Below, one piece after another: positions 1-64,000 of a DNA stretch of 64,000 nt (the first letter of the stretch is position 1; the number at the start of each line of letters is the position of its first letter). The translations under genes and the position numbers were made by a program. This stretch comes from Aspidapion aeneum. Its lineage: Eukaryota; Arthropoda; Insecta; Coleoptera; Brentidae. The stretch spans positions 1,240,001 to 1,304,000 of the forward strand of contig OY755047.1 in assembly GCA_963576565.1 (NCBI GenBank). The letters are read 5' to 3'. Under the pieces are notes generated by a model. The model did no database searches, had not been told where the DNA came from, and saw only the letters and a list, made by a program, of their open reading frames with translations.

Positions 1-3000
1 AAGTAGGAAAACATATATTTATGACATCTATTTTGGGCTCTTGGCGAGGGCTTTGGGCAGGGTTGCAAAGTCTGTTTTTTTAATATTACTGTAAATTTTT
101 GAGAAAAAAGACAACAAAATACGGTAAACGTTCCAATGTTCTTTACGGGTCGCAAATTTTTTTTTAGGTTTTCGAAAAACTCTCTTGTATCTTTGTTTCA
201 TTGTCATTGTTATACCTCAGGGAAATTTTGTAAATAATATAAGCTTAATAAATTGACTTTTTAAACACACTGTATATATACACTACGGCCCTAATTTAGA
301 TTTTGACTAGAAACTTCTTTTATTTTCTTAACTTTAATCGCTGAGTTGTGTAGGTGGCTGGAAGCATTTCAAGGCAACGGTCGTAGTTTTTTGCATTTTT
401 TAAACTAAGGGTCTCAAAAATAAAAAGGCAATAAATCTTCATTACGAATGGCAAGACGAAATGGCGAACCCCATGCTACGTCTTTCCCGTTCTTTTTTTT
501 TGTAAATATATAGGCGGGGATTTTAAAGTTATAGCCCCCACAAAAAACGTTTCTACTGAATATTTAAACCTCTAAAAATAAAGAACAGAAGTGTCTTTTG
601 AACCGAACGTCGAACTGAACTTAATTGTAGGTGTGGCAAAGCACTAAACGAATCCCTGGACGTGACTTCAGTCCTAAACTGTAATTTTATTGGTCCTGTT
701 TTACCTCGAACGGAGGACTGAACACAATAGGGGTGGTTTCAGCAAGGCTTCGTTTTCTTATTGGTCCAGTTCCAGCCCGAACGGAAAACTGAACTACCTA
801 ATGGGCGTAGCTTTAAAGTCAGCTTTTTTTCTTTATTTAGGCTTGTTTTATGGCAATCACTGAATTGTGTAGGTGGCAGAAAGCACGTCAAAGGAAAGAC
901 AACGGTCGTAGGTCTTTGCATTTTTAAAACTAAGGTTCTCAAAAGTATAAAAGGCAATAAATCTTCATTACGAATGACAGGACGAAATGCCGAACCCCAT
1001 GTACATCTTTCCCGTTTTTTTTGTAAATACAAGGCGGGGATTTTAAAGTTATAGCCCCACAAAAAACGCTTCTACTGAATATTTAAACCTCTAAAAATAA
1101 AGAACAGAGGTGTCTTTTGAACCCAACGTCGAACTGAACTTACTTGTGGGTGTTGCGAAGCCCTAAACGGATTCCTGGACGTGACTTCAGTCCTAAACTG
1201 TAATCTTATTGGTCCTGTTTTACCTCGAACGGAGGACTGAACATAATAGGGGTGGTTTCAGCCACGCACCGCTTTCTTATTGGTCCAGTTCCAGCCCGAA
1301 CGGAAAACTGAACTGTCTAATGGGCGTAGCTTTAGAGTCAGCTTTTTTCTTTATTTAAGCTTGTTTTACACAAAACGGAGGGTCATTTTTTGTTGTATAA
1401 AAAATTTCTTCTATTCTCTTATTTTCAAATGCCAATCACTGAATTGTGTAGGACAGAAAGCACGTCAAGGGAAAGACAACGGTCGTAGTTCTTTGCATTT
1501 TAAAAACTAAGGGTCTCAAAAGTATAAAAGGCAATAAATCTTCATTATGAATGACAGAACGGAATGGCGAACCCCATGCTACGTCTTTCCAGTCTTTTTT
1601 TTTTGTAAATATATAGGCGGAGATTTTAAAGTTATAGCCCCCACAAAAAACGCTTCTACTGAATATTTAAACCTCTAAAAATAAATAAAATAAACTTCTT
1701 TTTAACCGGAACATCGAACTGAATAAAATTGTGGGTGTGGCGAAGCACGAAACGGATCCCTGGGTGTTATTGCAGTCTTAAACTGTAATCTTATTGGTCC
1801 TGTTTTACCTCGAACGGTGGACTAAACATAATAGGGGTGGTTTCAGCCACGCACCACTTTCTTATTGGTCCAGTTCCAGCCCGAATGGAAAACTGAACTG
1901 TCTAATGGGCGTAGCTTTAGAGTCAGCTTTTTTTTCTTTATTTAAGCTTGTTTTACACAAAACGGAGGGTAATTTTTTGTTGTACAAAAAATCCCTTTTA
2001 TCCTCTTATTTTAAATGCCAATCACTAAATTGTGTAGGTGGCAGAAAGCATTTCAAGGCAAAGACAACGGTCGCAGTTTTTTGCATTTTTAAAACTAAGA
2101 GTCTCAAAATCTTCATTACGAATGGCAAGACGGAATGGCGAACCCCATGCTACGTCTTTCCCGTTTTTTTTTGTAAATATATAGGCGGGGATTTTAAAGT
2201 TACAGCCCCACAAAAAACGCTTGTACTGAATATTTAAACCTCTAAAAATAAAGAACAGAGGTGTCTTTTGAACCCAACGTCGAACTGAACTTACTTGTGG
2301 GTGTTCTGAAGCCCTAAACGGATTCCTGGACGTGACTTCAGTCCTAAACTGTAATCTTATTGGTCCTGTTTTACCTCGAACAGAGGACTGAACATAATAG
2401 GGGTGGTTTCAGCCACGCACCGCTTTCTTATTGGCCCAGTTCCAGCCTGAACGGAAAACTGAACTGTCTAATGGGCGTAGGTTTAGAGTCAGATTTTTTT
2501 CTTTGTTTAAGCTTATTTTACACAAAACGGAGGGTCATTTTTTGTTGTATAAAAAATTTCTTCTATTCTCTTATTTTTAAATGCCAATCACTGAATTGTG
2601 TAGGTGGCAGAAAGCACGTCAAGGGAAAGACAACGGTCGTAGTTCTTTGCATTTTTAAAACGAAGGGTCTCAAAAGTATAAAAGGCAATAAATCTTCATT
2701 ATGAATGACAGAACGGAATGGCGAACCCCATGCTACGTCTTTCCAGTTTTTTTTTGTAAATATATAGGCGGGAATTTTAAAGTTATAGCCCCAACAAAAA
2801 ACGCTTCTACTGAGTATTTAAACTTCTAAAAATAAAGAACAGAGGTGTCTTTTAAACCGAACGTCGAACTGAACTTATTTGTGGGTGTTGCGAAGCCCTA
2901 AACGGATCCCTGGACGTGACTGCAGTCTTAAACTGTAATCTTATTGGTCCCGTTTTACCTCGAACGGAGGACTGAAGATAATGGGGGAGGTTTCAGACAC

Positions 3001-3110
3001 GCTTCGCTTTCTTATTGGTCCAGTTCTAGCCCGAACGGAAAACTGAACTGTCTGATGGGCGTAACTTTAGAATCAGCTGTTTTTTTTATTTATTTAGCAT
3101 GTTTTATGAC
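1..3110 (+). repeat. Tandem array A, unit about 519-587 bp
   Basis: About five and a half diverged copies of one unit; the landmark ATTGGTCCTGTTTTACCTCG or a close variant starts near 688, 1208, 1793, 2360 and 2943. Each unit holds two 17-base boxes about 71 bases apart (starts near 707/778, 1226/1297, 1811/1882, 2377/2448, 2961/3032), each preceded by ATTGG; the second is followed by GGGCGTAGCTTT. Unit length varies mainly because a segment starting CACAAAACGGAGGGT is absent from the 840 copy and altered near 3100. Open frames of 60-150 codons on both strands are by-products of the repeat and shift between copies, so I do not call them genes. The array runs off the left end. Confidence 0.9.
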
Positions 3111-3464
3111 AAAAGGGTATTTTTTTGTTGTATTACAGTAATAATTATCAGCAATTATATTAGTGGTAAATCTGTACGTAAAGCTATTATAGAAACAAAG
3201 CGAGCGGGATTCGAGTCCTGCTGATTTCCATAACGATATCCTGTCCCGTCCAGAGACAGAATGAGGCAGGAAAGCGGAAACATCCAGGAATAACATCTCC
3301 TGGCTGGCATTACCCCAGTCTTGTTCTATTGCTATTATAACCGCGGTTTGGGGCGATAAGGGATTTTAGTTATGCATTACTTAGTACTTAGATACATCAC
3401 AGCTTAGACACTTAATTGAGGGGTGAAAAACCCGACTATATAATGTGGTATTGAATAAGATAAT
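3111..3464. other. Spacer with a weak tRNA-like B box
   Basis: No gene is seen. Around 3205-3222 the sequence GGATTCGAGTCCTGC resembles the B box/T arm of a tRNA or tRNA-derived SINE, but no convincing cloverleaf can be built around it. Confidence 0.35.
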
Positions 3465-4427: not shown

Positions 4428-4428
4428 A

Positions 4429-5134: not shown

Positions 5135-5136
5135 TA

Positions 5137-8640: not shown

Positions 8641-8644
8641 GTAT

Positions 8645-9125: not shown

Positions 9126-9198
9126 GCTTCGGTAGTTCAATGTTTAGAATGTTTGCGTACAGAGCAAGAGATCCCGGGTTCGAGTCCCGGCCGATGCA
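9126..9198 (+). tRNA. tRNA-like cloverleaf, anticodon position ACA (possible pseudogene)
   Basis: The 73 bases fold as a full cloverleaf: acceptor GCTTCGG with CCGATGC (one T-T mismatch), D stem GTTC/GAAT, anticodon stem TTTGC/GCAAG with loop GTACAGA, five-base variable loop, and a perfect T arm CCGGG TTCGAGT CCCGG. A run of T follows from 9205, as in a Pol III terminator. Oddities: the D loop lacks the usual GG pair, and ACA as anticodon would imply Cys, which eukaryotes normally read with GCA. A tRNA pseudogene, a tRNA-derived SINE head or an unusual tRNA are all possible. Confidence 0.5.
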
Positions 9199-9204
9199 GA
9201 AAAA

Positions 9205-10229: not shown

Positions 10230-12000
10230 TGCATAAATCTGCGTCTAACCCTACGTTATTGGTCATAAGGGATTAGTAAAAACTTGAGGAATATAAAAAA
10301 GCACACAGAAAAAGATTCAAAAACAGATCTTCAATCTAACAAATATCCAAATAAACAAGATTAAGAAGTGTCTTATAAGTCTTCGTAATGCTTTGTCATT
10401 GGTTAAAGAACGCCCGAACGGAGAACTGAACGGAAACAAAAGGATTCAGGCGTTTTTTATTAGTCTTCGCAATGCTTTGTCATTGGTTGAAGAACACCCG
10501 AACGGAGAACTGAACGGAAAGCAAGGCGTTGCTTAAATCTTAATTATGCCTTGTAATTGGTTGAAGAAAGCCCCAACGAAGAACTGAACGAAAGGTTAGG
10601 CGTGGCTTAAATCTTCGTAATGGTTTGTTATTGGTTGAAAAAAGCCCGTGCGGGATATTTAACTGAATGTTAAGCGTGGCTTACGTCTTAATCATGCCTT
10701 GTGATTGGTTAGGCGTAGTTTTAGGGTAACCCTACGTTATTGGTGATAAGGAATGAGTAAAAACTTGAGGAATATAAAAAAGCACACAGAAAAAGATTTA
10801 AAAACAGATCTTCAACCTAACAAATATTCAAACAAACAAGATTAAGATGTGTCTTATAAGTATTTGTAATGCTTTGTCATTGGTTGAAGAACACCCGAAT
10901 AGAGAACTGAACGAAAAGTGAGGCGATGCTTACGTCTAAATTATGCCTTGCAATTGGTTGAAGAAAGCCCGAACAAAGAACTGAACGAAAGGTTAGGCGT
11001 GGCTTAAACCTTCGTAATGGTTTGTTATTGGTTGAAAAAAGCCCGGGCGGGGAATTTAACTGAATGTTAAGCGTGGCTTACGTCTTAATCATGCCTTGTG
11101 ATTGGTTAGGCGTAGCTTTAGAGTAATCCTACGTTATTGGTCATATGGGATTGGTAAAAACTTGAGGAATATAAAAAATCACACGAAAAAAGATTCAAAA
11201 AAAGATCTTTAATCTAAAAAATATCAAAACAAAACGATTCAGGCGTATCTTATTAGTCTTCGCAATGCTTTGTCATTGGTTGAAGAACACCCGAACGGGA
11301 AACTGAACGGAAGATGAGGCGTCGCTTACGTCTTAAGCTTGCTTTGTGATTGGTTGAAAAAAGCCCGAACGAAGTACTGAACGAAAGGTTAGGCGTGGCT
11401 TAAATCTTCGTAATGGTTTGTCATTGGTTGAAAAAAGCCCGTGCGGGAAATTTAACTGAATGTTAAGCGTGGCTTACGTCTTAATTATGCCTTGTGATTG
11501 GTTAGGCGTAGCTTTAGGGTAACCCTACGTTATTGGTGATAAGGGATGAGTAAAAACTTGAGGAATATAAAAAAGCACACAGAAAAAGATTTAAAAACAG
11601 ATCTTTAACCTAACAAATATTCAAACAAACAAGATTAAGGCGTGCCTTATAAGTATTTGTAATGCTTTGTCATTGGTTGAAGAACACCCGAACGGAAAAC
11701 TGAATGAAAGGAACACCCGAACGGAAAACTGAACGAAAGGTGAGGCATTGCTTACTTTTTTTTATGCCTTGTAATTGGTTGAAGAAAGCCCGAACCAAGA
11801 ACTGAAGGAAAGGTTAGGCGTGGCTTAACTTTTCGTAATGGTTTGTTATTGGTTACAAAAAGCCCGGACGGAGAACTGAACGGACTGTTAAGCGTGGCTT
11901 ACGTCTAAATCGTGCCTTGTCATTGGTTAGGCGTGGCTTTAGTTATAATGCTTTGTGATTGGCTTTAGGTTACCCGAGTAGAGAACTGAACTAAATTTCG
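10230..12000 (+). repeat. Tandem array B with CCAAT-, TATA- and GC-box-like blocks
   Basis: A higher-order repeat: CCTACGTTATTGGT recurs near 10250, 10730, 11128 and 11523 (spacings about 480, 400, 394). Within each unit a shorter module repeats: ATTGGTTGAAGAA, then the 17-base box CGAACGGAGAACTGAAC or a near match, then AGGCGTGGCTTA. Each higher-order unit also has GAGGAATATAAAAAA (TATA-like, e.g. 10288-10300) followed by a conserved A-rich stretch with CAGATCTT. The arrangement is promoter-like, but no coding sequence follows any copy. Confidence 0.9.
10292..10299 (+). promoter_or_regulatory. TATA-like element repeated in array B
   Basis: TATAAAAA sits about 40 bases downstream of an ATTGGT block and is repeated near 10783, 11167 and 11567 in the same context. 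Whether it drives transcription is unknown. Confidence 0.35.
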
Positions 12001-22935: not shown

Positions 22936-23194
22936 ACTACCCCGTTAAGTCACCAACTATTATTTTCAACCAATAAAAGCGTTTATTTTTCATAATACGG
23001 CTTTGTTACAGTTCAGAACTCCGTTCGGTTATACACTCCTCCCAATAACATTTTAATCAACCAATGAAATGCGTTTATTTTTATAACTACGCCCCTATAT
23101 CGGTTTAGTTCTCCGTTCGGTCTAAGTATACAGTTGTTTAAACCATATTTGATTATTTCTGTAAAAAAAACTTTAGTGTTTTGTGCAATTGTCG
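22936..23194 (-). promoter_or_regulatory. Two composite boxes (17-mer plus CCAAT and GC boxes)
   Basis: On the minus strand the 17-mer occurs at 23011-23027 (CGAACGGAGTTCTGAAC) and 23103-23119 (CGAACGGAGAACTAAAC). The first is preceded 19 bases upstream by ATTGG. The second is followed after 8 bases by GGGGCGTAGTTATAA and then by ATTGGTT. This order and spacing match arrays A and B although the surrounding sequence differs. Function unknown. Confidence 0.6.
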
Positions 23195-24051: not shown

Positions 24052-24238
24052 CATGGTTTTATGTTTACAAACATGGACTCTACACCCGAGCGGAGGACTG
24101 AACGCTACTGTAGGCGTAACTTTACTTCACGTGAGTGCTATAATCAAGCTAATTGGTGCAACCCCGCTGTGCAAGCCCTTTCGACATTATTAGAGTGCCT
24201 GAACATGATTTGCAAATAAGCAATTAAAAATCTGTGCA
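24052..24238 (+). repeat. Left copy of a ~185-bp direct repeat flanking LINE-B
   Basis: Matches 25668-25848 over its whole length, including GTTTACAAACA, the 17-mer variant CGAGCGGAGGACTGAAC (24087-24103), AGGCGTAACTTTACTTCA after 8 bases, CTATAATCAAGCT, ATTGGTG and TAAGCAATTAAAAAT. Confidence 0.85.
24087..24103 (+). promoter_or_regulatory. 17-mer box in the direct repeat
   Basis: CGAGCGGAGGACTGAAC followed by 8 bases and AGGCGTAACTTT. Function unknown; entered because its order and spacing match the composite module elsewhere. Confidence 0.5.
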
Positions 24239-25667: not shown

Positions 25668-25848
25668 TAGGTTTTACGTTTACAAACAGGTACTCTACAC
25701 CCGAGCCGAGGACTGAACGCTACTGTAGGCGTGACTTTACTTCATGTGACCGCTATAATCAAGCTGATTGGTGCCACACAGCTGTCCAAGCTCTGTCGAC
25801 ATGATTAGAGTGCCTGAAAATGCTTTATAAATAAGCAATTAAAAATGG
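25668..25848 (+). repeat. Right copy of the ~185-bp direct repeat
   Basis: Second copy of 24052-24238 with the 17-mer variant CGAGCCGAGGACTGAAC at 25702-25718, then 8 bases and AGGCGTGACTTT. The two copies differ by scattered substitutions, so the duplication is not recent. Confidence 0.85.
25702..25718 (+). promoter_or_regulatory. 17-mer box in the right direct repeat
   Basis: One substitution from the left copy, in CGAGCCGAGGACTGAAC. Function unknown. Confidence 0.45.
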
Positions 25849-35122: not shown

Positions 35123-35275
35123 CTCTGACGTTAAGTCAGTTGATATTTCTTAGATAGCCTTGGATAATACTTGGTTGTCAGGGTGTTGTCAAGGTACCAT
35201 AAAATAACTGTTAAAATACAAACAACGCCGTGGAGATTTCTGCGATTTGCTAGTGCGTTCCCAAAAGTAAAAAAA

Positions 35276-36589
35276 ATGGATATTGATATTGATACAGCTG
35301 CCGCAGAGGCAGTGAAGGCACTGCTGCCCGCTAAATCGGAGAAAATATATGAAAAACAATACAAACATTTCCTGGATTGGTGTCAAGCTAACGATGTTGC
35401 TGATGTTACACAGGAGAAGGTACTTCTTGCATATTTCTTCCATCATGCGAAAAATATGAAGGCTTCAACGGTTTGGTCACATTATTCAATGATTAAATCA
35501 AAGTTGATCGTTGAAAAAAGTTTGGACATTGGAAAATATTCAAAATTGAAGGCATTTTTGAAAAGAAATGGGGATGGCTACCGCCCAAAGAAGCCTCGAA
35601 TACTGGACATGGATCATATCCAGCAGTTCCTCCAGGAAGCACCAAATCAAGAATATTTGATGATCAAGGTAAAGTGAACTGTTTTTACATTATTTTGAAC
35701 CATGTTAACGTCACTGATTCGAAATATCATTTGTTGCTATCAGGTTACGTAGTTTGTACAAAAAATTGTATTGCTACTTAGTAACTGAAAAATCTCTTTT
35801 TTCCAGGCGGCGTTGATAATGGGAGTTGCCGGTGCATGCAGGGGTGTTGAACTGTGCCAGCTACAGAATGAAGATGTTCAAGTCCAAGATTTTCATCTTG
35901 TTGTCACAGTTCGCAACACGAAAAATCAAACTGATCGATGCTTCATAGTGAAGAACTCCAAAGAAAGCAACGCTACAGACGTAGTGAAAATCTGTAAATC
36001 CTACATGGCTCTGAGACCAACAAATTTGACAATATCGAGATATTTCATTGGCTATAAAGACGGCAAATGTTTATCACAACCTGTTGGAAAGAATACTTTT
36101 GGGCTTTTCCCGCGAAAAATAGCTGCCTTCCTGAACCTGCCAGAGGCCCTTTCATACACAGGACACTGCTTCAGGCGTACCTCTGCTTCCCTTTTAGCAG
36201 ATTCTGGAGCGAATATTGACCAGCTCAAAAGACACGGTGGTTGGAAAAGTGCTACCGTTGCTGAAGGGTATGTTGAGCAATCAATCGAAAACAAAAAAAA
36301 TGTGGCGGATAAAATATTCAGTCAAAACTTGAGGACAGATGTCAAGAGTCATAAAAGCCAAGGCCAATCACGTACCGTAACAGTATGCAATTTTCCAGAA
36401 CCCACAATCAACGAAGACAGCAGCACTGATCACACCGAACCAGCAATTTTCGGATCTCCACTGCAAAACATCAACCTCAACCAACAGCGAAGCGAAATCG
36501 ATTCAGATCCAGGATCATTGATTCATTTAGTTGGCTGTAGCGGCGCTATTTTGAATATCAATATAACAAACAATAATAATGTCAAATAA
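35276..36589 (+). CDS. Tyrosine recombinase, two exons, apparently intact
   Basis: Exon 1 is 35276-35668 (131 codons). A 138-base intron (35669-35806, GTAAAG...TTTTTTCCAG, phase 0) follows, then exon 2, 35807-36589, with stop TAA, for 391 residues. The start is the first ATG after the TATA box and has a strong context (AAAAAAATGG). The N-terminal ~100 residues look like the helical core-binding domain of phage-integrase-type enzymes (KIYEKQYKHFLDWCQANDV). The catalytic domain begins with GVAGACRGVELCQL, whose Arg fits the first catalytic position. GHCFRRTSASLLADSGAN supplies the HxxR pair, QLKRHGGWKSATVAEGY the second His/Trp and the nucleophilic Tyr. The C-terminal ~90 residues are polar and probably disordered. 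The enzyme would cut and rejoin DNA through a tyrosine linkage, presumably at the flanking palindromes. I infer a Crypton-like transposon gene; a domesticated host copy is the alternative. No frameshift or in-frame stop is seen. Confidence 0.85.
35669..35806 (+). other. Spliceosomal intron of the recombinase gene
   Basis: A GTAAAG donor and a pyrimidine-rich TTTTTTCCAG acceptor with in-frame stop codons inside. Removal joins EYLMIK to AALIMGVAG in phase 0, restoring a continuous integrase fold. Confidence 0.85.
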
Positions 36590-37815: not shown

Positions 37816-38454
37816 TCCAGCACTACAATTTGACTTAAAATGTACTAAATTGCAAACTATAATTCACGTCAAAAAGTTGATTTATTTTGTAAATACAGTA
37901 GCTAGACATGGTTAAAGGTAAGAAATCTGTAATTTCAAAAAAATTGTGTACATAATGCACATATTAAAGATTATAAATTATTTAAAAAAAACTTTTTAGC
38001 ACTAGTAAATTACAATTATTTTTTAAATAGATAAAAGTGACTAGATATTTTGCCTTGAGAACAATTTACAGTTAGCCAAATTATGACATTTTACATAAAA
38101 CTTCAATTAATCTTATTTTTCGGATGACCCCAAAAATAATAATGCATACAATTTTTCGGGAATCTAAAAATAGTGTCATGATAAAAATAACAAATTTTAT
38201 ATTTATGAACATACAAAACAATTTCATAAATAAACGCATTTTGTCACAAAAGCACATAAAGGCACTCTAAACCTGAACGGAGGACTGAACGTGAAAATAG
38301 GCGGATCACATCTGATAGATAGATATATGATTGGTTGATTGAAGACCGTGAAACCTGTTTTAAAACAGTTGAAGGCGTTATATACACGATAAGATGATTG
38401 AACACATAAAAAGGCAGACCAAAGTAATACGATAATTTGCCATTAGTTAATTAA
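37816..38454. other. Intergenic DNA with one isolated 17-mer box
   Basis: No gene; the isolated box at 38274-38290 is described separately. Confidence 0.5.
38274..38290 (+). promoter_or_regulatory. Isolated 17-mer box
   Basis: TGAACGGAGGACTGAAC followed by 8 bases and AGGCGGATC, then ATTGGTTGATTGAAG at 38331. Preceded by GGCACTCTAAACC, a stretch also seen beside the boxes of array E. Function unknown. Confidence 0.5.
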
Positions 38455-39405: not shown

Positions 39406-39990
39406 AAATAAAACTAATTCTCCAGGATTGTGTTAGATTCTTTACAAATCCATTGGATTTACATAATTCTGGCTAAAAATTTATTTAAAAGCAAAGCTTA
39501 CAAAATTTATCAACCACATAAATCTGCTTTGATGAGAAAATATTGCTGTTTGGGAGGCCCCTTCATTTACTCCAATTTACTCGGAGCGGTAACGAGAAAA
39601 GATTTATTCGAACTTAAGAAAACCGAAAAGATATAAGTGCCAGAAAATTTCTTTTAGACGTCAGAAAAGTTATTCCTTCATGAAGATAATTTTTCATTAC
39701 GAAAACTTTTGCGGAACAGGAAAGTTTCTGTATTAAAAAGTTCGTGATTCAAACAAAAATATGGGCATAGCACGTAGACACCTAGATTTATAATCCTAAT
39801 CCTCCCACCATATTTGGTTTTTGACATCAGACATAAAAAACAAAAAATAATTTTTTTAAATGTGAAAAAAATTACGAAGAAACAAAAGTTGTTATGAACA
39901 TGAACAAGTAATAAAAACTACAAGGTATGGTCAAAATCTGATAAACCGATAAACAAATTTAAAAATAATTGGTTAAATAGTAAATATTGC
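39406..39990. other. Intergenic DNA
   Basis: No gene or repeat recognised. Confidence 0.5.
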
Positions 39991-39994
39991 ACAC

Positions 39995-40200
39995 TAAAAA
40001 ACAAAAAAAATCATCTGAAGAAATTTTTATTTAAATTATAACTGACTTTTGGGTGTAAACGAGGTCATTAGCTGACTGCTGCCCAATCACAAGTTTGCTT
40101 TACGCCTTGGTCCGCCCTTTTGTGCGTTCAGTTCTCCGTTCGGGCCTAGAACTCCTTTAACTGTTTCAAATACCAAATTACAGGCTATCATTTTGATGAA
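39995..40200 (-). repeat. Isolated array-D unit
   Basis: The reverse complement contains ATTTGAAACAGTTAAAGGAG, the 17-mer (40126-40142), GGGCGGACCAAGGCGTAAAG, GTGATTGG and GTTTACACCCAAAAGTCAG, in the same order as array D at 41900-46990. Confidence 0.85.
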
Positions 40201-40244
40201 TGATATGTTAACTTATTTTGTTTTTTTTGTCTAAGATAATCTAA

Positions 40245-41214
40245 ATAAAAAACTATTTTCACTACTGCTATGTCGCTTTAGAATGGTTTTATACGTTGTC
40301 AGATTTTTTTGACTTATTGATCTTTGGATTGACTGTTGCCATTCCACTTTAGGACGTCCTCTTTTTGTGCGCTCTATTGGTTGCCATTCTAGGACCTGCT
40401 TTGTTAATCTTTCGTCGTTCCATAGTCGTACCATATCAGTTGTCTTTTGGTGATGTCATCCGTTATGTTTCCTTGATTCTCATTCTTTGTTTTATGGTCT
40501 TATTTCTTATATGATCTGTTCTTTTATTTCGACACTATCCATTTCCATTTTCTTGTTTTGGATTTTTCTGTTGCCGTACAAGTCTCTATTCCAACACCGT
40601 TGTTAAATTTTACATCCTTTTTTATCTCTCTGCTCCATAAAATAATGCTAAGATATCCAATAACCATTTTTGCTTTTACTAATCTTTTTTCCGGTTCTTT
40701 ACAGTCTGTTGCTGTCTTATCAAATGTGACACAAGTATACATACACATTGCATGGAGATATTGTTTGTCCATTGTCTAGTTTTACTCACTTGATTTGTTT
40801 CCAATACATAAGTACTGTGTCTTGTCCACGTTCACTGTTAACCCCTACCTTTGGTATCCTTCTGTTAACTTCCTCATTGTCCTCGATGTCATCTTGATCA
40901 TTAGCTACAATTACTTGGTCGTCAGCAAACTGTAGTGTGTACATGGTAAATCGGTCATTAAGTTGTAGTCCTATACCATGTACTTTATGTTTCCAGTTTT
41001 TTAGAGCTACTGCAATATATATTTTAAAAAGAGTTGGAGATATACAACATTCCTGTCTTAAGCCTTTCGTTAACAGGAATTCTTTTAAAAGTCGATTTGC
41101 AATTTTAATTTTAGATTTTGACCCTTTTTATAGTTCTTTTATCGCTTTTTGTATTTATGATTGATATTAATTTGCTCTAACACTGTCCATAACTTTTCTA
41201 CTGGAAGGCATTAT
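40245..41214 (-). pseudogene. LINE-B remnant, palm to C-terminus
   Basis: On the minus strand, the palm keeps LQFADDQVIVANDQDDIEDN with both catalytic aspartates (near 40920), then thumb and C-terminus (RLTKQVLEWQPIERTKRGRP). Several frameshifts interrupt it. Sequence at 41755-41880 continues the same element after an insertion. Confidence 0.85.
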
Positions 41215-41899: not shown

Positions 41900-44800
41900 G
41901 CACAGTAACGTCAAATCCACAGATTGCTATCTTTATTAATAACCGAGTTTCCCATTTAATCCCATCGAAAATGGAACAGGTTGATAAAAAATAATGATAA
42001 AAACCTCTTTGTTATTATATTGACCAGAAACCGTCGTGGCCAGAAAAAATATAATATGAGCCAAATTAAATTGATTGTAACGAATTATCACGAAAATTGG
42101 GCCGAGGTCGTTGCGAACAGCAATTTAACAATAAAACACGAAAAATTTATAAAACTGCATCTCTAAATCTTTGCTAATGGATGAATAACGAGGATATTGG
42201 AAAATAATTGTGCTGCGTAAATGGATCGATTTATTATGGAAAGAATAAAACTTGCCTGGAGCGAAATAAATAAAAAACACGATTTTGTTTTAGTATGTTA
42301 TTTTTATTTTTCTATAGTCAGTTAATGCCAACTAATTTATTTTAACATTAAAACAATCAATCAATTTATGTAGGATTTATTTTAGACAAGGAAAAATAAA
42401 ATAAATCAATATGTCATTCATCCAAATGATCTAAATCAGCCTGTGATTGGTTATTTGAAATACTTAAAGGCATTTTAGAACCGAACGGAGAACTGAACGC
42501 GCAAAAGGGCGGGTCAATGCGTAAGGCTAACGCGTGATTGGTCAGCAGTCAGCTGACCCTGTTTACACCAAAAAGTCAGTTATAATTAAAAATAAAAGGA
42601 TCCATGACGGATCTCATACCTTCCTAGCCCATTGGCACACTCCAAGTGAACTCCACGCTATATCAGCCTTGAAAACAGTTTTTTGTAAATATCTACGTAC
42701 CGAGAGCTCGGTACATATTATTTATCTAAATATTTTAAACGATAACCTGTAATTGGTTATTTGAAACAGTTTAAGGTGTTCTAGACACGAACGGAGAACT
42801 GAACGCACAAAAGGGCGGAACAAGGCGTAAAGCAAACTTTGTGATTGGTCAGCAATCCGCTTATAACCTTGTTTACACCCAAAAGTCAGCTTTAATTTAA
42901 AAAAAAGTTCTTCAGGCGATTCTTTTTGTTTTTTAGTATGCCATATTTACTATTTACAAATTAGTTTTAGATGTATCTACACCTTAAATATTGTAACAAA
43001 TTATCAGGAAAATTGGACCGAGGTCAGTGCGAACAGCAATTGAACAATAAAACTCGAAAAATTTATTCAACTGCATCTCTAAATCTTTGCCAATGGATGA
43101 ATAACGAGGATATTGGAAAATAATTGTGCTGCGTAAATGGATCGATTTATTATGGAAAGAATAACACTTGCCTGGAGCGAAGTAAATAAAAAAACACGAT
43201 TTTGTTTTAGTATGGTATTTTTATTCTTCTATAGTCAGTTAATGCCAACTAATTTATTTTAAAATTAAAACAATCAATCAATTTATGTAGGATTTTTTTA
43301 GACAAGGAAAAATTAAATAAATCGACATGTCATTTATCCAAATGATCTAAATCAGCCTGTGATTGGTTATTTGAAATACTTAAAGGCATTTTAGAACCGA
43401 ACGGAGAACTGAACGCGCAAAAGGGCGGATCAAGGTGTAAGGCTAACGCGTGATTGGTCAGCAGTCAGCTGATGACCATGTTTACACCAAAAAGTCAGTT
43501 ATAATTAAAAATAAAAGAATCTAAGACGGATCTAATACCTTCCAAGTGAACTCTATATCAGCCCTGAAAACAGTTTTTTGTAAATGGCCCCAAACCGAGA
43601 GCTCCTACGAAGTTGGTTTGGTTATAATACATAGTATCAGCTCGTTATACAAACACCATTTTTCATGTAAATCTCATGAAAATTGGTACAGTGGTTCCGG
43701 AGCTATTGTGGACCGGACAGACACACACACATGGACAGAACAACAGCGTCTCTAGCCATTGGTGCGCGGGTTAGGAAGGAAAAAATAATTGCTTGTCAAT
43801 TTTACACAAAGAAATATTTAAATATTTTAAAAGATAACTTGGTTATTTGAAACAGTTTAAGGCGTTCTAGACCCGAACGGAGAACTGAACACACAAAAGG
43901 GCGGAACAAGGCGTAAAGCAAACTTTGTGATTGGTCAGCAATCCGCTTATAACCTTGTTTACACCCAAAAGTCAGCTTTAATTAAAAAAAAAGTTCTTCA
44001 GACGATTTTTTTTGTTTTTTAGTATGCCATATTTAGTTTTAGATGTATCTACACCTTAAATATTGTAACAAATTATCACGAAAATTGGACCGAGGTCAGT
44101 GCGAACAGCAATTGAACAATAAAACTCGAAAAATTTATAAAACTGCATCTCTAAATCTTTGCCAATGGATGAATAACGAGGATAATGGAAAATAATTGTG
44201 CTGCGTAAATGGATCGATTTATTATGGAAAGAGTAACACTTGCCTGGAGCGAAATAAATAAAAAAACACAATTTTGTTTTAGTATGTTATTTTTATTGTT
44301 CCAGTCAGTTAATGCCAACTAATTTATTTTAAAATTAAAAAAAATCAATCAATTTATCTAGATTTTTTTTAGACAAGGAAAAATAAAATAAATCAACATG
44401 TCATTCATTCAAATGATCTAAATCGGCCTGTGATTGGTTATTTGAAATAGTGAAAGGCATTTTAGAACCGAACGGAGAACTGAGCGTGCAAAAGGGCGGG
44501 TCAATGCGTAAGCCTAACGCGTGATTGGTCAGCAGTCAGCTGGTGACCCTAATTACACCAAAAATTCAGTTATAATTAAAAATAAAAGGATCCATGACGG
44601 ATCTAATACCTTCCAAGTGAACTCTATATCAGCCTTGAAAACAGTTTTTTGTAAATGGCCCCAAACCGAGAGCTCCTACGAAGTTGGTTTGGTTATAATA
44701 CATAGTATCAGCTCGTTATACAAACACAATTTTTCATGTAAATCTCATGAAAATTGGTACAGTGGTTCCGAAGCTATTGTGGACCGGACAGACACACACA

Positions 44801-46990
44801 CATGGACAGAACAACAGCGTCTCTAGCCATTGGTGCGCGGGTTAGGAAGGAAAAAAATAATTGCTTGTCAATTTTACACAAAGAAATATAAAATAATATT
44901 AATACATATCATTTATTTAAATATTTTAAAAGATAACCTGTGATTGGTTATTTGAAACAGTTTAAGGCGTTCTAGACCCGAACGGAGAACTGAACACACA
45001 AAAGGGCGGAACAAGCCGTAAAGCAAACTTTGTGATTGGTCAGCAATCCGCTTATAACCTTGTTTACACCCAAAAGTCAGCTTTAATTAAAAAAAAAGTT
45101 CTTCAGGCGATTTTTTTTGTTTTTTAGTATGCCATATTTACTATTTACAAATTAGTTTTAAATGTATCTACTATCTATCTAGTATGTTATTTTTATTCTT
45201 CTATAGTCAGTTAATGCCAACTAATTTATTTTAAAATTAAAAAAAAATCACCGAGTTGCAGTATTGTGGCGTTATACATATACTAAAAAACCACTGAGTG
45301 AGTTGAGATTCCAAAAAACGTCATTTAGCTATTTTTAGTATAGGGAAACCCATAAGACCAAAATGGCAAAACTTTGAAAATTCATATTTTACAAACTATA
45401 CAGTTTATCAAAAAAAGCACCGAGTTGCAGTATTGTGGCGTCATACAGATACGAACAAACCACTGAGTGAGTTAAGATTCCAAAAAACGTCATTCAGCGA
45501 TTTTTAGTATAGGGAAACCCATAAGACCAAAATGGCAAAACTTTTGAAAATTCATATTTTACAAACTATACAGTTTATCAAAAAAAGCACCGAGTTGCAG
45601 AATTGTGGCGTCATACAGATACGAAAAAAGCACTGAGTGAGTTGAGATTCCAAAAAACGTCATTTAGCGATTTTTAGTATAGGGAAACCCATAAGACCAA
45701 AATGGCAAAACTTTGAAAATTCATATTTTACAAACTATACAGTTTATCAAAAAAAGCACCGAGTTGCAGTATTGTGGCGTCATACAGATACGAAAAAACC
45801 ACTGAGTGAGTTGAGATTCCAAAAAACGTCATTTAGCGATTTTTAGTATAGGGAAACCCATAAGACCAAAATGGCAAAACTTTGAAAATTCATATTTTAC
45901 AAACTATACAGTTTATCAAAAAAAGCACCGAGTTGCAGTATTGTGGCGTCATACAGATACGAAAAAACCACTGAGTGAGTTGAGATTCTAAAAAACGTCA
46001 TTTAGCGATTTTTAGTATAGGGAAACCCATAAGACCAAAATGGCAAAACTTTGAAAATTCATATTTTACAAACTATACAGTTTATCAAAAAAAGCACCGA
46101 GTTGCAGCATTGTGGCGTCATACAGATACGAAAAAACCACTGAGTGAGTTGAGATTCTAAAAAACGTCATTTAGCGATTTTTAGTATAGGGAAACCCATA
46201 AGACCAAAATGGCAAAACTTTGAAAATTCATATTTTACAAACTATACAGTTTATCAAAAAAAGCACCAAGTTGCAGTATTGTGGCGTCATACAGATATAC
46301 GAAAAAACCACTGAGTGAGTTGAGATTCCAAAAAACGTCATTTAGCGATTTTTAGTATAGGGAAACCCATAAGACCAAAATGGCAAAACTTTGAAAATTC
46401 ATATTTTACAAACTATACAGTTTATCAAAAAAAGCACCGAGTTGCAGTATTGTGGCGTCATACAGATTCGAAAAAACCACTGAGTGAGTTGAGATTCCAA
46501 AAAACGTCATTTAGCGATTTTTAGTATAGGGAAACCCATAAGACCAAAATGGCAAAACTTTGAAAATTCATATTTTATAAACTATACAGTTTATAAAATT
46601 CATATTTTATAAACTATACAGTTTATCAAAAAAAGCACCGAGTTGCAGTATTGTGGCGTCATACAGATACGAAACACCACTGAAGATTTTTTTAGACAAG
46701 GAAAAATAAAATAAATCAACATTCATTCAAATGATCTCAGCCTGTGATTGGTTATTTGAAACAGTTTAAGGCATTCTAGACCCGAACGGAGAACTGAACG
46801 TGCAAAAGGGCGGACCAGGGCGCAAAGTAAACGTGTGATTGGTCAGCAGTTAGCTAATAACCTTGTTTACACCCAAAAGTCAGTTATAATTTTACAAAAA
46901 ATTCAGACGATCTTTTTTTGTTTTTTAGTGTGTCATATTAAATATTTAGCCATTTATTTTACAGTAGGATTGTCGTTTAATAGTTGAAAA
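41900..46990 (+). repeat. Tandem array D, ~0.9-1.07 kb higher-order unit
   Basis: The landmark for the unit, AACRAATTATCACGAAAATTGG or a variant, recurs near 42078, 42999 and 44063. Each higher-order unit has two related blocks with ATTGGTTATTTGAAA, the 17-mer (near 42482, 42787, 43397, 43877, 44468, 44979, 46785), AAAGGGCGG, GTGATTGGTCAGCA and TTTACACC. Here the upstream ATTGG lies about 36 bases before the 17-mer, twice the distance in arrays A, B and E. A ~280-bp segment at 43510-43790 and 44590-44870 (ending GGTGCGCGGGTTAGGAAGG) is present in two units and largely absent at 42620, so it may be a separate insertion. Confidence 0.9.
45245..46684 (+). repeat. 170-bp satellite, about 8.5 copies, within array D
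   Basis: CACCRAGTTGCAG recurs about every 168-171 bases (near 45249, 45418, 45589, 45757, 45925, 46095, 46264, 46435, 46639). Copies are almost identical. The last is shortened and preceded by a small duplication at 46580-46622. The array sits between halves of an array-D unit: sequence before 45245 and after 46684 continues the normal order seen at 44335-44390, with about a dozen bases missing. Confidence 0.95.
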
Positions 46991-49735: not shown

Positions 49736-49870
49736 TGGTTTCTGTTCGGTGGATTTTGGTCATTTTAAAATGGGACCATCTCGACCCAAAACCCAGCCTA
49801 GGTACCAAATTTCGTTAAAATCGGCCAAGCGGTTTTTGAGTTATGCGCGTTGGTCGTTACAGACAGACAT

Positions 49871-51012
<1,142 letters not shown>

Positions 51013-51279: not shown

Positions 51280-51727
51280 AAAAATGAAAAATGAAAAATG
51301 AAAAATGAAAAATGAAAAATGAAAAATGAAAAATGAAAAATGAAAAATGAAAAATGAAAAATGAAAAATGAAAAATGAAAAATGAAAAATGAAAAATGAA
51401 AAATGAAAAATGAAAAATGAAAAATGAAAAATGAAAAATGAAAAATGAAAAATGAAAAATGAAAAATGAAAAATGAAAAATGAAAAATGAAAAATGAAAA
51501 ATGAAAAATGAAAAATGAAAAATGAAAAATGAAAAATGAAAAATGAAAAATGAAAAATGAAAAATGAAAAATGAAAAATGAAAAATGAAAAATGAAAAAT
51601 GAAAAATGAAAAATCAAAAATCAAAAATCAAAAATCAAAAATCAAAAATCAAAAATCAAAAATCAAAAATCAAAAATCAAAAATCAAAAATCAAAAATCA
51701 AAAATCAAAAATCAAAAATCAAAAATC
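51280..51727 (+). repeat. Heptamer array with a single switch of unit
   Basis: About 48 units of GAAAAAT (51280-51614) are followed directly by about 16 units of CAAAAAT (51615-51727), without mixing. Minus-strand FIFHFSF frames are artefacts. Confidence 0.97.
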
Positions 51728-54490: not shown

Positions 54491-54499
54491 CTGAACAAT

Positions 54500-54563: not shown

Positions 54564-55004
54564 AATCAGAATTAATTAATACCTATTTCTCCTAAAATTT
54601 CCGCTTAATTCTGCTTAAGGCTCAATTTTTTGCTTAAATCTTGAATAAATTTAGAAATAAATCCTGAAAACGTGATGATAATCTTTCCATTAAGTTTTTT
54701 ACCCCTTCAGGTATATTTATTTAACTTAAACCCTTGTTTTTTCGACGCCACAGTACAAAAACCTTCTAAAAACAATTACATTACACTCTTAATGCAAACC
54801 CAGGTGCTCTAGCAACAAGAATAATTATATACAACTGCAACAGCCAATGAAAAAAGCACAACTTTTATTAGTTCCGCCTTTTACTCGTTCAGTCCTCCGT
54901 GCGAGGTAGAAGTACCACACACAAGCGGATATTTTAGAAAGGTTGGCCAAAAAAACATATTAGCATTGAATATATAATATTATATAGTCGTTGATACCAC
55001 CAAG
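54564..55004. other. Intergenic DNA with one 17-mer box
   Basis: No gene. The box at 54887-54903 is listed separately. Confidence 0.5.
54887..54903 (-). promoter_or_regulatory. Isolated 17-mer box
   Basis: On the minus strand, CGCACGGAGGACTGAAC is followed by 7 bases and AGGCGGAAC, then about 35 bases further on by ATTGG. Function unknown. Confidence 0.5.
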
Positions 55005-55165
55005 TCAATCTGCATAAGAAGAGGTGTCAGAAAGCGTAACACAATACCCTTTAAATTATTTAACGAGGCCCTAGATGTTTTAAAAAATTTAGATTGGGTA
55101 GAAGTGGGCATCAAAGTAAGCGGACAATATTCGAACCACCTAAGAAATGCTGACGGAAACTAGCG
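55005..55165 (+). pseudogene. LINE-C fragment, palm region
   Basis: IRRGVRKRNTIPFKLFNEAL and NLDWVEVGIKVSGQYSNHL match LINE-C at 33405-34220, with a frameshift between them; the catalytic motif has become NAD followed by a break. Confidence 0.75.
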
Positions 55166-55948
55166 AAAGATCTATAGTATATTATATCCAAGAACGCATC
55201 CAGAGGGGGGCCTCGGGGTCCGGGCCCCCTCAAGCCTAAGATTTTTATAAATTTTTTCCTGACACATATTTTTTGAATAAAAACAAAAAAGAGCATGGAA
55301 TTACATCATTAGGTGCTCCTATCCTACCTAGCTCTCTAAATCTAAATAAATTAAAATGGAAAATTTACGCTTCCCTTAGTCCCAGAATTTTGGAGAGAAC
55401 TCTATATTTACTTTATCTAAGATCACAAACTTTCGATTAATATTCATATTTATCTATTAGGCTGCCGATGCTATCAAATATCAAGTAGAACTGTACTTTT
55501 GTTTGTAGTTTAATCTCCATCTCGAAAATTAACATTTTCGTTGCATATTATGCATAATTCGTGATATTAAGACCTCATTTCAACTAGACAAACTATAGCT
55601 TTTTATGCAAAACATTTATGATTCTTTCTATTTAGCTTTTGAGTTATTAAAGTCCAATGATATAAAATCATGGATCATAAAGTACACACCCTGTATATTT
55701 AGAAACTTCGCACTAACTTACACATACTCAATAAACTTCAAAAGAAAACAGTTTATTGTTTCTTCACGGAATGGTTGCACTCTTTTTTTTTAAATAAAAC
55801 TGAAATAATTTTAAAGCGCTTGTATAAAAGTTTTGACCAGATTTACAACAAAATATACCTGTGTGCGCTCTAGACAAAAGTGGCAACTATACGCACCTCA
55901 AAGAACCAATGAGAAGTGCTTAAGGTCTTTTGGTCCCGCCTCACAGGC
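55166..55948. other. Intergenic DNA
   Basis: No gene. The GC-rich patch 55203-55240 resembles the reverse complement of 24008-24045. Confidence 0.5.
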
Positions 55949-55965
55949 GTTCAGTCCTCCGTTGG
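55949..55965 (-). promoter_or_regulatory. Isolated 17-mer box
   Basis: On the minus strand, CCAACGGAGGACTGAAC is followed by 7 bases and AGGCGGGACC, then ATTGG about 40 bases downstream; preceded by AGGCACTCAC, as at 38262 and in array E. Function unknown. Confidence 0.5.
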
Positions 55966-55989
55966 GTGAGTGCCTGTAAGAAAATGTAA

Positions 55990-56855: not shown

Positions 56856-56856
56856 A

Positions 56857-58291: not shown

Positions 58292-58293
58292 TA

Positions 58294-60535: not shown

Positions 60536-60539
60536 GTTT

Positions 60540-61044: not shown

Positions 61045-61510
61045 TAAATAAAAAAAACACCCAACTGCTAAATTTACTTGTAAGTACTAATCGCAGTTTA
61101 GTACAAATTGTTTAGTTTAGTACAAAACTAGTAAAATGGTGTTGGAAAAAAATCTGAAAGCGTATGCAAAAAGAATTTTTGAAATCGCTCTATATTTGAT
61201 ACAATTATGCGAATATGGTTTTTGAATAGGGTGGGGGGACTGGCAGGTGGGGAGATGGGGAGATGGGTGGAAGCAGGGAGGACCAGAAAGTAACTACAGC
61301 AAATCAAAGGAATTTCAATAAAATCGCCTGAAATTTAGATCATTTGTATGTCATATAGCCTATAGCACCTTCGGGATCAGTAGCAATTTTTTTGTGAAAA
61401 TCGGTTCAGCCGTTTAGCCTCTAGCGTGACACAAACATATTTACTTACATACATACAACAATCGAAAAACATTACCCTTCCTTTCGCCGTGCCGCAGTTG
61501 GGTAAAAAAA
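61045..61510 (+). repeat. Second copy of the 26126-28560 repeat block, without its insertions
   Basis: Begins with a decayed CCCAACTGC-family MITE (61045-61125) and continues with the 27640-28560 repeat. The AATAAAATCGCCTGAAATTT stretch near 61315 is the empty site for the hAT-like element at 27848-28269. Confidence 0.85.
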
Positions 61511-62089
61511 GAAAAATCGGCGGCAAATATTCCCCGCGGCGAATCGGCAGCGGCAAATTGGCTGCGGCGAATTGTCCTATCCACATTAATCTTATACCAT
61601 CTAAAAAAATACGTCTTAACGAAAAAAAATTGCGATGTTTTAGTTAAAAAAATTTGACCTTTACTTAAAATGAAAACAAAAATTTTTATTTAACAAAATT
61701 AACATAAAAAGTGTAGCTTTCACAAAATTTCGGGAAAACAAAAGAAAAATGTGAAAGAAAGAGTTAAAAAAAAACAGTTTTTTTTGCTGCGAAAATTTTA
61801 GGTGATATGAATAGGTATTTTGACTGGTCTAATTTTTGAAAGTTTTAAAATAGTGCATAGCTTTTTTTTAAAGTTCGTAGGAAGAATGTGTACACATCAT
61901 AATAAAAAGTTTTGCAAGGTCTTATTTTTAGAGATATTAAAAATCTCGGTTCATACTTGGCTTCGTAAAGAAATTTAGTTGTAAGGAATGTTGCCTGAAG
62001 GATTTTCATTCATTTTTGTAAATAAAAATGTCTCTTGGGAAAAAGGCTTTTAGACTTTTTTTAATAGTCTAATGATACTTCTTTAAGTC
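61511..62089. other. Intergenic DNA
   Basis: No gene. 61520-61575 is a short GC-rich run of CGGCGGCAAAT/CGGCAAATTGG-like direct repeats. Confidence 0.5.
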
Positions 62090-64000
62090 ACAGGCGATTT
62101 ACACCGCTTCACCTCTAAACCAATGAGAAAATTTCAATCTGTTATAGCCACACCATTTGCGGGTCAGTCCTCCGTTCGGGGTATGATCCAACCAATCACA
62201 AGCTTCTACTAGAAATGGCCACACCTTTTTGGGGCGGTGTTTCAACCAATATTCACAACTTTTTAAGTTCAGTCCTCTATCTTGTGCATTATAATTGGCT
62301 TATTAACATACTCGTCCGCCCTCGGGTTATCTTCTAAGTTTTGCATAATTATACTGCTGGAATAAAACAGTAGATAACTTTTAAACACTATTGTTTCTCG
62401 AAGTATTCTCCACGAACAGTAATGCACTTTTGCATGCGCTCAAACCAGTTGTCAAAACTGTAATTCCACTCGTTTGTTGGTATTGTCAATATTGAATTCT
62501 TCCAGTTCCAGAAGTTCCAGTCTGATATGGCCGCACCCTTTGCGGGTCAGTCCTCCATTCGGGGTCTGGTTCAACCAATCATAATCCTTAAATAGACCTG
62601 GCCACACCTTTCTTAAGGCGGTGTTACAACCAATAACCAAACCTTATTTTATTTCAGTCCTGTAATCTTGTCTATTATAATTGGCTTATTGGCATATCGT
62701 TTAAACTTTTGTTTTTCTTTTCGTCCCGTTAATTTTCTGTACGGTATTGAAAAAAAAGGCCTTCATACGTGTGCAACTCTCTTGTTTTTTAATATTCTAA
62801 TGATAATTTTTTAAATCATAGGCACTCTAAACCGCTTTACCCAACCAATCAAGAAGTTTCAGTCTGATATGGCCGCACCCTTTGCGGGTCAGTCCTCCAT
62901 TCGGGGTCTGGTTCAACCAATCATAATCCTTAAATAGACCTGGCCACACCTTTCTTAAGGTGGTGTTACAACCAATAACCAAACCCCATTTTATTTCAGT
63001 CCTGTAATCTTGTCTATTATAATTGGCTTATTGGCATATCGTTTAAACTTTTGTTTTTCTTTTCGTCCCGTTAATTTTCTGTACGGTATTGAAAAAAAAG
63101 GCCTTCAAACGTGTGCAACTCTCTTGTTTTTTAATATTCTAATGATAATTTTTTAAATCATAGGCACTCTAAACCGCTTCACCCAACCAATCAAGAAGTT
63201 TCAGTCTGATATGGCCGCACCCGTTGCGGGTCAGTCCTCCATTCGGGGTCTGCTTCAACCAATCATAATCCTTAAATAGACCTGGCCACACCTTTCTTAA
63301 GGCGGTGTTACAACCAATAACCAAACCCCATTTTATTTCAGTCCTGTAATCTTGTCTATTATAATTGGCTTATTGGCATATCGTTTAAACTTTTGTTTTT
63401 CTTTTCGTCCCGTTAATTTTTTGTACGGTATTGAAAAAAAAGGCCTTCATATGTGTGCAATTCTCTTGTTTTTCAATATTCTAATGATCATTTTTTAAAT
63501 CATAGGCACTCTAAACCGCTTCACCCAACCAATCAAGAAGTTTCAGTCTGATATGGCCGCACCCTTTGCGGGTCAGTCCTCCATTCGGGGTCTGGTTCAA
63601 CTAATCATAATCCTTAAATAGACCTGGCCACACCTTTCTTAAGGCGGTGTTACAACCAATAACCAAACCCCATTTTATTTCAGTCCTGTAATCTTGTCTA
63701 TTATAATTGGCTTATTGGCATATCGTTTAAACTTTTGTTTTTCTTTTCGTCCCGTTAATTTTCTGTACGGTATTGAAAAAAAGGCCTTCATACGTGTGCA
63801 ACTTTCTTGTTTTTTAATATTCTAATGATAATTTTTTAAATCATAGGCACTCTAAACCGCTTCACCCAACCAATCAAGAAGTTTCAGTCTGATATGGCCG
63901 CACCCTTTGCGGGTCAGTCCTCCGTCCGGGGTCTGGTTCAACCAATCAGAGTCTTTAAATAGACATGGCTACACCTTTCTTAAGGCGGTGTTCCAACAAA
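62090..64000 (-). repeat. Tandem array E, 342-bp unit, continuing past the window
   Basis: GGGTCAGTCCTCC recurs near 62160, 62544, 62886, 63228, 63569 and 63910; the last four spacings are 341-342. Later copies are nearly identical; the first is diverged. On the minus strand each unit has ATTGGTTGAACCAGACCCCG leading into the 17-mer variant, then 7 bases and GGGTGCGGCC (GGTGTGGC in the first copy), plus further CCAAT sites. 342 is about twice the 170-bp satellite unit at 45245, but the sequences differ. Confidence 0.93.

What the first reader, a model, noticed from the sequence alone, without database searches (positions are those of the whole stretch)
1..64000. A composite box shared by several otherwise unrelated repeat families
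The 17-mer CGAACGGAGRACTGAAC, or a form one to three bases away, occurs about forty times on both strands. It is in tandem arrays A (1-3110), B (10230-12000), D (41900-46990) and E (62090-64000), and at isolated places (23011, 23103, 24087, 25702, 38274, 54887, 55949). Outside the box these sequences do not look alike. The order is also conserved: ATTGG begins 17-19 bases before the box in A, B, E and at 23011, and about 36 bases before it in D; a GC/CACCC-type box (RGGCGKRGC) begins 7-8 bases after it almost everywhere. CCAAT plus GC box plus a new element is a promoter-like arrangement. A satellite-binding protein site, in the manner of the CENP-B box, would also explain conservation inside diverging repeats; I compared it with the CENP-B box and it is not that motif.
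Basis: partly seen in the sequence, partly recalled or inferred. Interest (0 to 1): 0.88.

Follow-up and report, generated by a model that had tools for sequence, protein, structure and literature searches.

The report
One-chromosome promoter-like motif arrays
Near one end of one insect chromosome, many repeat families that otherwise look unrelated are built around the same short DNA signal, usually followed at near-fixed distances by two common gene-switch signals, which suggests a local binding platform for regulatory proteins whose purpose is unknown.

Summary
The 17-mer occurs 47 times in the window (<=3 mismatches; 0.13 expected). Between families the 19-bp box is 0.83 identical and distant flanks 0.27-0.28. 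The fuller grammar is box, GC box (40 of 47), ATTGG at +50..61 (32 of 47); the finding named only the upstream CCAAT. In the host genome (1.29 Gb, probably an earwig) box plus GC box at <=2 mismatches gives 41 places, 39 on contig C10, 36 of them 0.87-4.3 Mb from a telomere; at <=3 mismatches the pattern does not beat its reversed control. Further tandem families share it, and one array lies between Notch exons. C10 is probably not the ancestral X. Best reading: a locally multiplied promoter/enhancer-like binding module for an unknown long-footprint protein plus GC-box and CCAAT factors; binding sites are kept, spacers drift. CENP-B and structured RNA genes are not supported; dosage compensation is unlikely. 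A TIR-like mobile unit, a small-RNA promoter cluster and a meiotic pairing-centre-like site remain open. No expression or binding data were available, so function is inferred.

The parts
315..3133 (+). Array A, units about 520-590 bp, up to three boxes each (e.g. 604, 707, 778); the second and third boxes 71 bp apart
   Evidence: 14 boxes <=3 mm
10246..12000 (+). Array B, 397-bp units containing 74-bp modules ATTGG-box-GC box
   Evidence: 12 boxes <=3 mm
22964..23121 (-). Two modules (boxes 23103 and 23011, 92 bp apart)
24055..24231 (+). Module with box 24087, GC box, ATTGG at +65, TAGAGTGCC at +104
25670..25846 (+). Second copy (88.7%) with box 25702, directly after a LINE 3' end
38261..38337 (+). 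Singleton module, box 38274, GGCACTCTA at -13, GC box, ATTGG at +56; partly D-like
39957..40249 (-). Inverted single copy of a D unit, box 40126 (not in the finding)
42361..46961 (+). Array D, two unit types (boxes 42482, 42788, 43398, 43874, 44469, 44979, 46783); interrupted by a box-less 169-bp satellite 45241-46598
42788..42848 (+). Example of the grammar: box 42788-42804, GGGCGG from 42813, ATTGG at 42844 (+56)
54793..54923 (-). Singleton module, box 54887, GC box, ATTGG at +55, TATATAA, TAGAGCACC at +92
55855..55985 (-). Singleton module, box 55949, GC box, ATTGG at +55, TAGAGCGC at +93
62057..64000 (-). Array E, 342-bp units, boxes 62162-63912; similarity continues past the window end to about base 491 of L018

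Best explanation
The shared thing is a short composite regulatory module: a 19-bp site (about 32 bits in 25 classes, long enough to suggest a multi-finger or dimeric DNA-binding protein), a GC/CACCC-type site 7-8 bp later (Sp/KLF-like, recalled), and often an ATTGG (CCAAT, NF-Y-like, recalled) about 54 bp from the box start. It multiplied locally on one chromosome, as singletons and as tandem satellites. Selection, or repeated reuse, keeps the binding blocks and their spacing while spacers and repeat units drift beyond recognition. Most likely the module works as a Pol II promoter/enhancer-type element and the locus is a dense binding hub that opens a chromatin domain and drives non-coding transcription. 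Shown: motif, grammar, spacing, near-restriction to one chromosome, lack of similarity in the rest of the units. Inferred: that proteins bind, that there is transcription, and what the hub is for.
For: Box 47 vs 0.13. Between families 0.83 in the box against 0.27-0.28 in distant flanks, with sharp edges; in 11 singletons box 0.84, spacer 0.29, upstream 0.28. 26 classes: GC box 23 of 26 (background 0.031), ATTGG starting at +50..57 13 of 26 (background 0.0084), against 0 of 6 for both in box-like places at 4.58 Mb, 60.4 Mb and C8:19.3 Mb. 73 boxes: first GC box at +23..25 in 62, first ATTGG at +53..57 in 40. Box-to-box distance 71, 73-74 and 71 bp in three otherwise unlike arrays, A, B and G. 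A place picked only by box plus GC box (1.969 Mb) had ATTGG at +55 and TAGAGTGCCTG further on. LINE 3' ends lie just upstream of modules on the same strand (5 of 8 within 450 bp, 0 of 8 for the opposite strand), as if this side were accessible.
Against: No expression, chromatin or binding data. TATA at best weakly enriched. Within arrays the box is only modestly more conserved than the rest. 13 of 26 classes lack ATTGG at +50..57, and 23 of 73 boxes have none within 90 bp. Classes were chosen by box score, so box conservation itself is partly ascertained. The LINE threshold was chosen after looking; a first test with 7 ends and 200 bp gave 2 of 7, P 0.03. Single copies exist on C8 and C9, and the box occurs without grammar elsewhere.
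Confidence: 0.5

Rival explanations
1. A MITE-like mobile unit of about 125 bp with inverted ends CAGGCACTCTA...TAGAGTGCCTG, in which the box is a subterminal transposase site; copies hopped locally and some became satellites.
For: GGCACTCTA-like letters at -13 in 7 of 35 classes and TAGAGTGCC-like letters at +92..104 in 7 of 35; both for 24087 and 25702, and with a shifted left arm for the 4.23 Mb array and 55949. The copy at C8:412 kb aligns with the 4.23 Mb array at 78.5% over 121 bp, from just before the box to +115, about 12 bases past CCTG, and no further. The 1.969 Mb module also has TAGAGTGCCTG.
Against: A general inverted-repeat test reached p<0.05 only for family H (1 of 21 classes). 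No target-site duplication was seen by eye (not tested by program). Spread is nearly restricted to one chromosome, unlike MITEs. Transposase sites would not explain CCAAT plus GC box at constant spacing within unrelated spacers.
Confidence: 0.2
2. Promoters of a clustered small-RNA or short ncRNA gene set, in the manner of the C. elegans Ruby-motif piRNA clusters.
For: One-chromosome clusters of an upstream motif are known for piRNA genes (PMC6436959, start of abstract in a listing; PMC11262695, abstract); modules lie on both strands (52 + and 21 - in 139 kb).
Against: Tens of copies found here, not thousands. No common sequence after the modules; RNA folds of 13 modules have z from -2.24 to +1.34; Rfam finds one tRNA-like match in the window and no other family at gathering score (window only).
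Confidence: 0.12
3. A meiotic pairing-centre-like or other chromosome-identity site: zinc-finger-type sites massed near one end of one chromosome recruit meiotic machinery.
For: C. elegans pairing centres lie near one chromosome end, span up to a megabase and hold about 100-1000 dispersed ZnF sites (PMC9140367, passages). Here 9 of 9 exact box+GC matches and 39 of 41 at <=2 mismatches are on C10, 36 of those 39 within 0.87-4.3 Mb of its telomere. Earwigs are thought holocentric (PMC4359364, passages).
Against: GC box and CCAAT look transcriptional; single copies on C8 and C9; other chromosomes were not searched for motifs of their own; the host order is inferred from its telomere.
Confidence: 0.1
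4. One old neutral repeat family whose best-preserved part happens to be the box.
For: A common core module of about 60-125 bp suggests common descent of the module itself; within arrays the box is not far above the rest.
Against: Neutral drift to chance identity on both sides should not leave about 16 of 19 box positions; spacing is kept while the spacer is not.
Confidence: 0.05
5. X-chromosome dosage-compensation entry sites.
For: Chromosome-specific satellites take part in Drosophila dosage compensation (PMC11228850, start of abstract in a search listing).
Against: Both Plexin genes found are on C11 and Ephrin on C1; these are Drosophila dot-chromosome genes (recalled), the ancestral insect X (PMC10715201, passages), so C10 is probably not it. 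Only these two marker families were run. Sites are confined to one end.
Confidence: 0.03

Closest known systems
DXZ4 macrosatellite (mammalian X)
   Same: Chromosome-restricted tandem repeat in which, across mammals, sequence conservation is restricted to a protein-binding motif (CTCF; PMC3491370, abstract).
   Different: Here many unlike families plus singletons within one genome share the motif; the motif does not resemble CTCF's as recalled (not compared by program); probably not X-linked; binding untested.
C. elegans meiotic pairing centres (HIM-8/ZIM sites)
   Same: Motif massed near one end of one chromosome, up to about a megabase (PMC9140367, passages).
   Different: Those sites are short and, as recalled, have no GC box/CCAAT grammar; other chromosomes here were not tested for motifs of their own.
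C. elegans piRNA clusters with Ruby motif
   Same: Upstream motif clustered in megabase domains of one chromosome (PMC6436959, start of abstract in a listing; PMC11262695, abstract).
   Different: More than 10,000 genes there; tens of modules found here, often in satellites, with another motif.
CENP-B box satellites
   Same: A 17-bp site kept in diverging satellites (recalled).
   Different: Sequence differs (7 of 17); also occurs as singletons and between exons of a gene.

Membership tests
Pol II promoter/enhancer module | Binding-site blocks at near-fixed spacing in unrelated spacers | tested here: met
Pol II promoter/enhancer module | TATA or start site at fixed distance | tested here: inconclusive
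   loose TATA 6 of 26, background 0.079, P 0.014; strict 3 of 26, P 0.18; controls 2 of 6 loose, 1 of 6 strict
Pol II promoter/enhancer module | Transcription and factor binding | not testable with these tools
   no expression or ChIP data held
CENP-B box satellite | Match to the CENP-B box | tested here: not met
   7 of 17 on either strand (CENP-B letters recalled)
DXZ4-like macrosatellite | Conservation restricted to a factor site in chromosome-restricted tandem repeats | tested here: met
   (near-restriction: single copies on C8 and C9); that the block is a factor site is inferred
DXZ4-like macrosatellite | X linkage | tested here: inconclusive
   indirect: two X-marker families lie on C11 and C1, not C10
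DXZ4-like macrosatellite | CTCF binding | not tested
   -
C. elegans-type pairing centre | Motif mass near one end of one chromosome | tested here: met
C. elegans-type pairing centre | Other chromosomes have their own motif clusters | not tested
C. elegans-type pairing centre | Zinc-finger protein bound in meiosis | not testable with these tools
Ruby-motif piRNA cluster | Short RNA start at fixed distance | not testable with these tools
   no small-RNA data
MITE | Terminal inverted repeats | tested here: inconclusive
   arms in some classes; general test p<0.05 in 1 of 21
MITE | Genome-wide dispersal | tested here: not met
   39 of 41 places (<=2 mismatches) on one contig holding 5.65% of the genome
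Structured ncRNA gene family | Stable fold / Rfam family | tested here: not met
   13 folds, most unusual z -2.24; Rfam on the window only

The most novel reading that the evidence does not exclude
A chromosome-identity site outside nematodes: one telomere-proximal region of an insect chromosome carries a private composite DNA code, repeatedly re-amplified in unrelated satellites, that a dedicated DNA-binding protein reads to mark this chromosome (pairing, segregation or domain-wide control), with other chromosomes carrying other codes.
Probability: 0.1. Interest if true: 0.93.

Novelty: new variant of a known kind. Interest (0 to 1): 0.74.

Why it matters
Conservation limited to site-like blocks, across many satellites of one genome and nearly one chromosome, separates what is kept in satellite DNA from what drifts. 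It gives a precise probe (19-bp box, spacing rule, coordinates) for finding the protein that reads it, and makes the question why unrelated repeats on one chromosome share a binding code testable by pull-down, FISH and gonad RNA.

Tried and rejected
Whole-length homology of families: rejected. CENP-B: rejected on sequence. Structured RNA genes: 13 folds, and Rfam on the window, no support. tRNA-type Pol III boxes: compared by eye only, not convincing. Dosage compensation on the ancestral X: weakened by two marker families; two more that I had planned were not run. Host first taken for a beetle from protein names, then for an earwig from its telomere. General terminal inverted repeats: only family H at p<0.05. 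Other collections: 4 IMG/VR contigs hold the 17-mer; their flanks show neither the GC box nor ATTGG at the usual places. Box-like places at C10 4.58, 4.64, 8.48, 9.12 and 60.4 Mb, C8:19.3 and 25.6 Mb, C6:45.7 and C2:6.8 Mb: no GC box or ATTGG at the usual places, set aside as chance or retroelement copies. The 4.58 Mb array (box in 5 units, no grammar) is unexplained. At <=3 mismatches the box+GC pattern does not beat its reversed control (82 vs 152), so only its 0-2 mismatch tiers are used; the control is not split by tier. Print: no paper in the library holds the box letters (six terms); a search for tandem repeat, CCAAT box, GC box, satellite DNA, promoter and Coleoptera together found none.
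Full report
Observation. The 17-mer CGAACGGAGRACTGAAC occurs 47 times (<=3 mismatches) in the window against 0.13 expected, at every isolated place named in the finding and once more at 40126 on the minus strand. A profile scan (built from 21 of the hits) is bimodal: the 47 score over 21 bits, the next in the window 15.2, and the highest score in 20 shuffles is 18.1. Aligned on the box, 16 representatives (112 between-family pairs) average 0.83 identity over positions -2..16 (0.86 over the 17-mer) and 0.27 and 0.28 in far upstream and downstream flanks, with a second block at +25..29. Gapped flank comparisons gave 2 of 45 (upstream) and 8 of 45 (downstream) pairs at p<0.05, some within one family or through a second box.

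Grammar. It is there in 27 of 47 boxes at 16-20 bases and in 6 of 47 at 36, but the more general feature is downstream: GC box (GG[CT]G starting at +22..30) in 40 of 47 and ATTGG at +50..61 in 32 of 47. In 26 box classes from the wider locus (chosen by box score; arrays count once per box type) the GC box is met in 23 (background 0.031), ATTGG starting at +50..57 in 13 and at +50..67 in 16 (background 0.0084 and 0.020), and none of the three in 6 box-like control classes from three loci. Of 73 boxes in the contiguous 139 kb, the first GC box lies at +23..25 in 62 and the first ATTGG at +53..57 in 40; 23 have no ATTGG within 90 bases. Neighbouring boxes are often 71 (A), 73-74 (B) and 71 bp (G) apart, in arrays otherwise unlike. 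The 19-bp box carries about 32 bits in 25 classes. Several classes also have ACTCTA upstream (6 of 25, background 0.004) and TAGAGTGCC-type letters at +92..104 (7 of 35).

Selection test. Within eight family alignments the box exceeds the average of the rest in all eight, but only in D (all) and D2 is it among the top 3% of equally long windows; for the other six 8-43% of windows are as conserved. The strong argument is between families: eleven singletons keep 0.84 identity in the box with 0.29 in the spacer and 0.28 upstream. Since the places were found by the box, that part is ascertained; the GC box and ATTGG were not used to find the first 47.

Whole genome. The window is C10:1,240,001-1,304,000 of a 1,286,157,303-base assembly of 149 contigs. 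Exact 17-mers: 25 in the genome, 24 on C10, reversed control 0. With <=2 mismatches: 285 against 68 in the control; only the first 100 are listed. A degenerate pattern (CGARYGKAGNACTGAMC) gave 51 places, control 0: 46 on C10, 3 on C8, 2 on C48; composition alone predicts about 3. Box plus GC box gave 9 of 9 exact places on C10, 20 of 22 at <=1 and 39 of 41 at <=2 mismatches; the two others are C8:412,406 and C9:51,098,525, and three of the 39 (9.12 Mb) lack the GC box. At <=3 mismatches the total (82) is below the reversed control (152), so that tier carries no weight. C10 is 5.65% of the genome.

More families. Stretches taken from C10 showed further tandem families with box and GC box: F (1.211 Mb, about 302 bp), G (1.332 Mb, box pairs), H (4.229 Mb, about 246 bp, ATTGG at +54-55 in 4 of 6 boxes) and J (1.203 Mb, about 655 bp), a three-box cluster I (1.188 Mb), and singletons at 1.321, 1.337-1.342, 1.969 and 2.144 Mb. 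The 1.969 Mb place, found by box and GC box only, has ATTGG at +55 and TAGAGTGCCTG further on. An A-type array lies at 870 kb between exons of a Notch-type gene (NOD domain and EGF exons on the minus strand). The 2.144 Mb module lies about 4 kb from a COE/EBF exon. The C8 copy matches family H at 78.5% over 121 bp and no further. The C9 copy has the GC box but CAATGG where ATTGG would be.

Host and chromosome. C10 begins with (CCGAA)n; its other end as assembled shows none. The telomere motif TTCGG/CCGAA is in print for the earwig Labia minor as new for insects (PMC11829193, passages), so the host is probably an earwig. The named relatives of a recombinase ORF were mainly beetles with two moths among the 120 listed of 400, which I read as database bias. 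Earwigs are thought holocentric and lacking CenH3, on modest evidence (PMC4359364, passages). Plexin matches are on C11 and Ephrin on C1. Both are dot-chromosome genes of Drosophila (recalled), and that element is the ancestral insect X (PMC10715201, passages), so C10 is probably not it.

Mechanism. The pattern (blocks kept with spacing, spacers random, both strands, singletons and satellites, one region) is what a composite protein-binding module gives. GC box and CCAAT point to Pol II control; the 19-bp box needs a long-footprint reader that is not identified. Some D units also show TTATAA and GTCAG at promoter-like distances (by eye), but TATA is not clearly enriched overall. LINE 3' ends fall 30-438 bp upstream of a same-strand box in 5 of 8 copies and within 1 kb of an opposite-strand box in 0 of 8 (P about 1e-4 at 450 bp; threshold and copy length chosen afterwards; a first cut gave 2 of 7 within 200 bp, P 0.03), which would fit accessible DNA on that side. 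Function is inferred, not shown.

Comparison. Closest in logic is DXZ4, where conservation across mammals is restricted to the CTCF motif (PMC3491370, abstract). Closest in chromosomal layout are C. elegans pairing centres (PMC9140367, passages) and piRNA clusters (PMC6436959, start of abstract in a listing; PMC11262695, abstract). For each of these some defining feature could not be tested. Two library searches found no paper on this element.

Noticed in passing
C10:1205001-1344000; window 23193, 25670, 40297: 3' ends of one LINE family lie 30-438 bp upstream of a box on the same strand in 5 of 8 copies, none within 1 kb upstream of an opposite-strand box: possible target-site preference (post hoc).
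   Followed up: partly
L040 (C10:1-600): Contig begins with (CCGAA)n telomere; the box contains CCGAAC, possibly by chance.
   Followed up: partly
window 9126-9198: tRNA-Cys-like sequence (ARAGORN anticodon aca; Rfam tRNA 56 bits), perhaps a SINE head.
   Followed up: no
window 49859-51012 and 51280-51726: Near-perfect (ACAG)n of 1.15 kb and (AAAAATG)n of 0.45 kb.
   Followed up: no
window 35168-36586: Two neighbouring ORFs; the second (35789-36586) matches Phage_integrase, Crypton-like; named relatives in beetles and moths.
   Followed up: partly
window 45241-46598: 169-bp satellite, 8 copies, inside array D, without the box.
   Followed up: no
L024, L026, L028 (C10:60.40-60.45 Mb): Histone-like ORFs next to a LINE whose copies carry the 17-mer without the grammar.
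   Followed up: partly
L023:5164-6058 (C10:4.58 Mb): 222-bp satellite with an exact or near-exact box but no GC box or ATTGG at the usual places; unexplained.
   Followed up: partly
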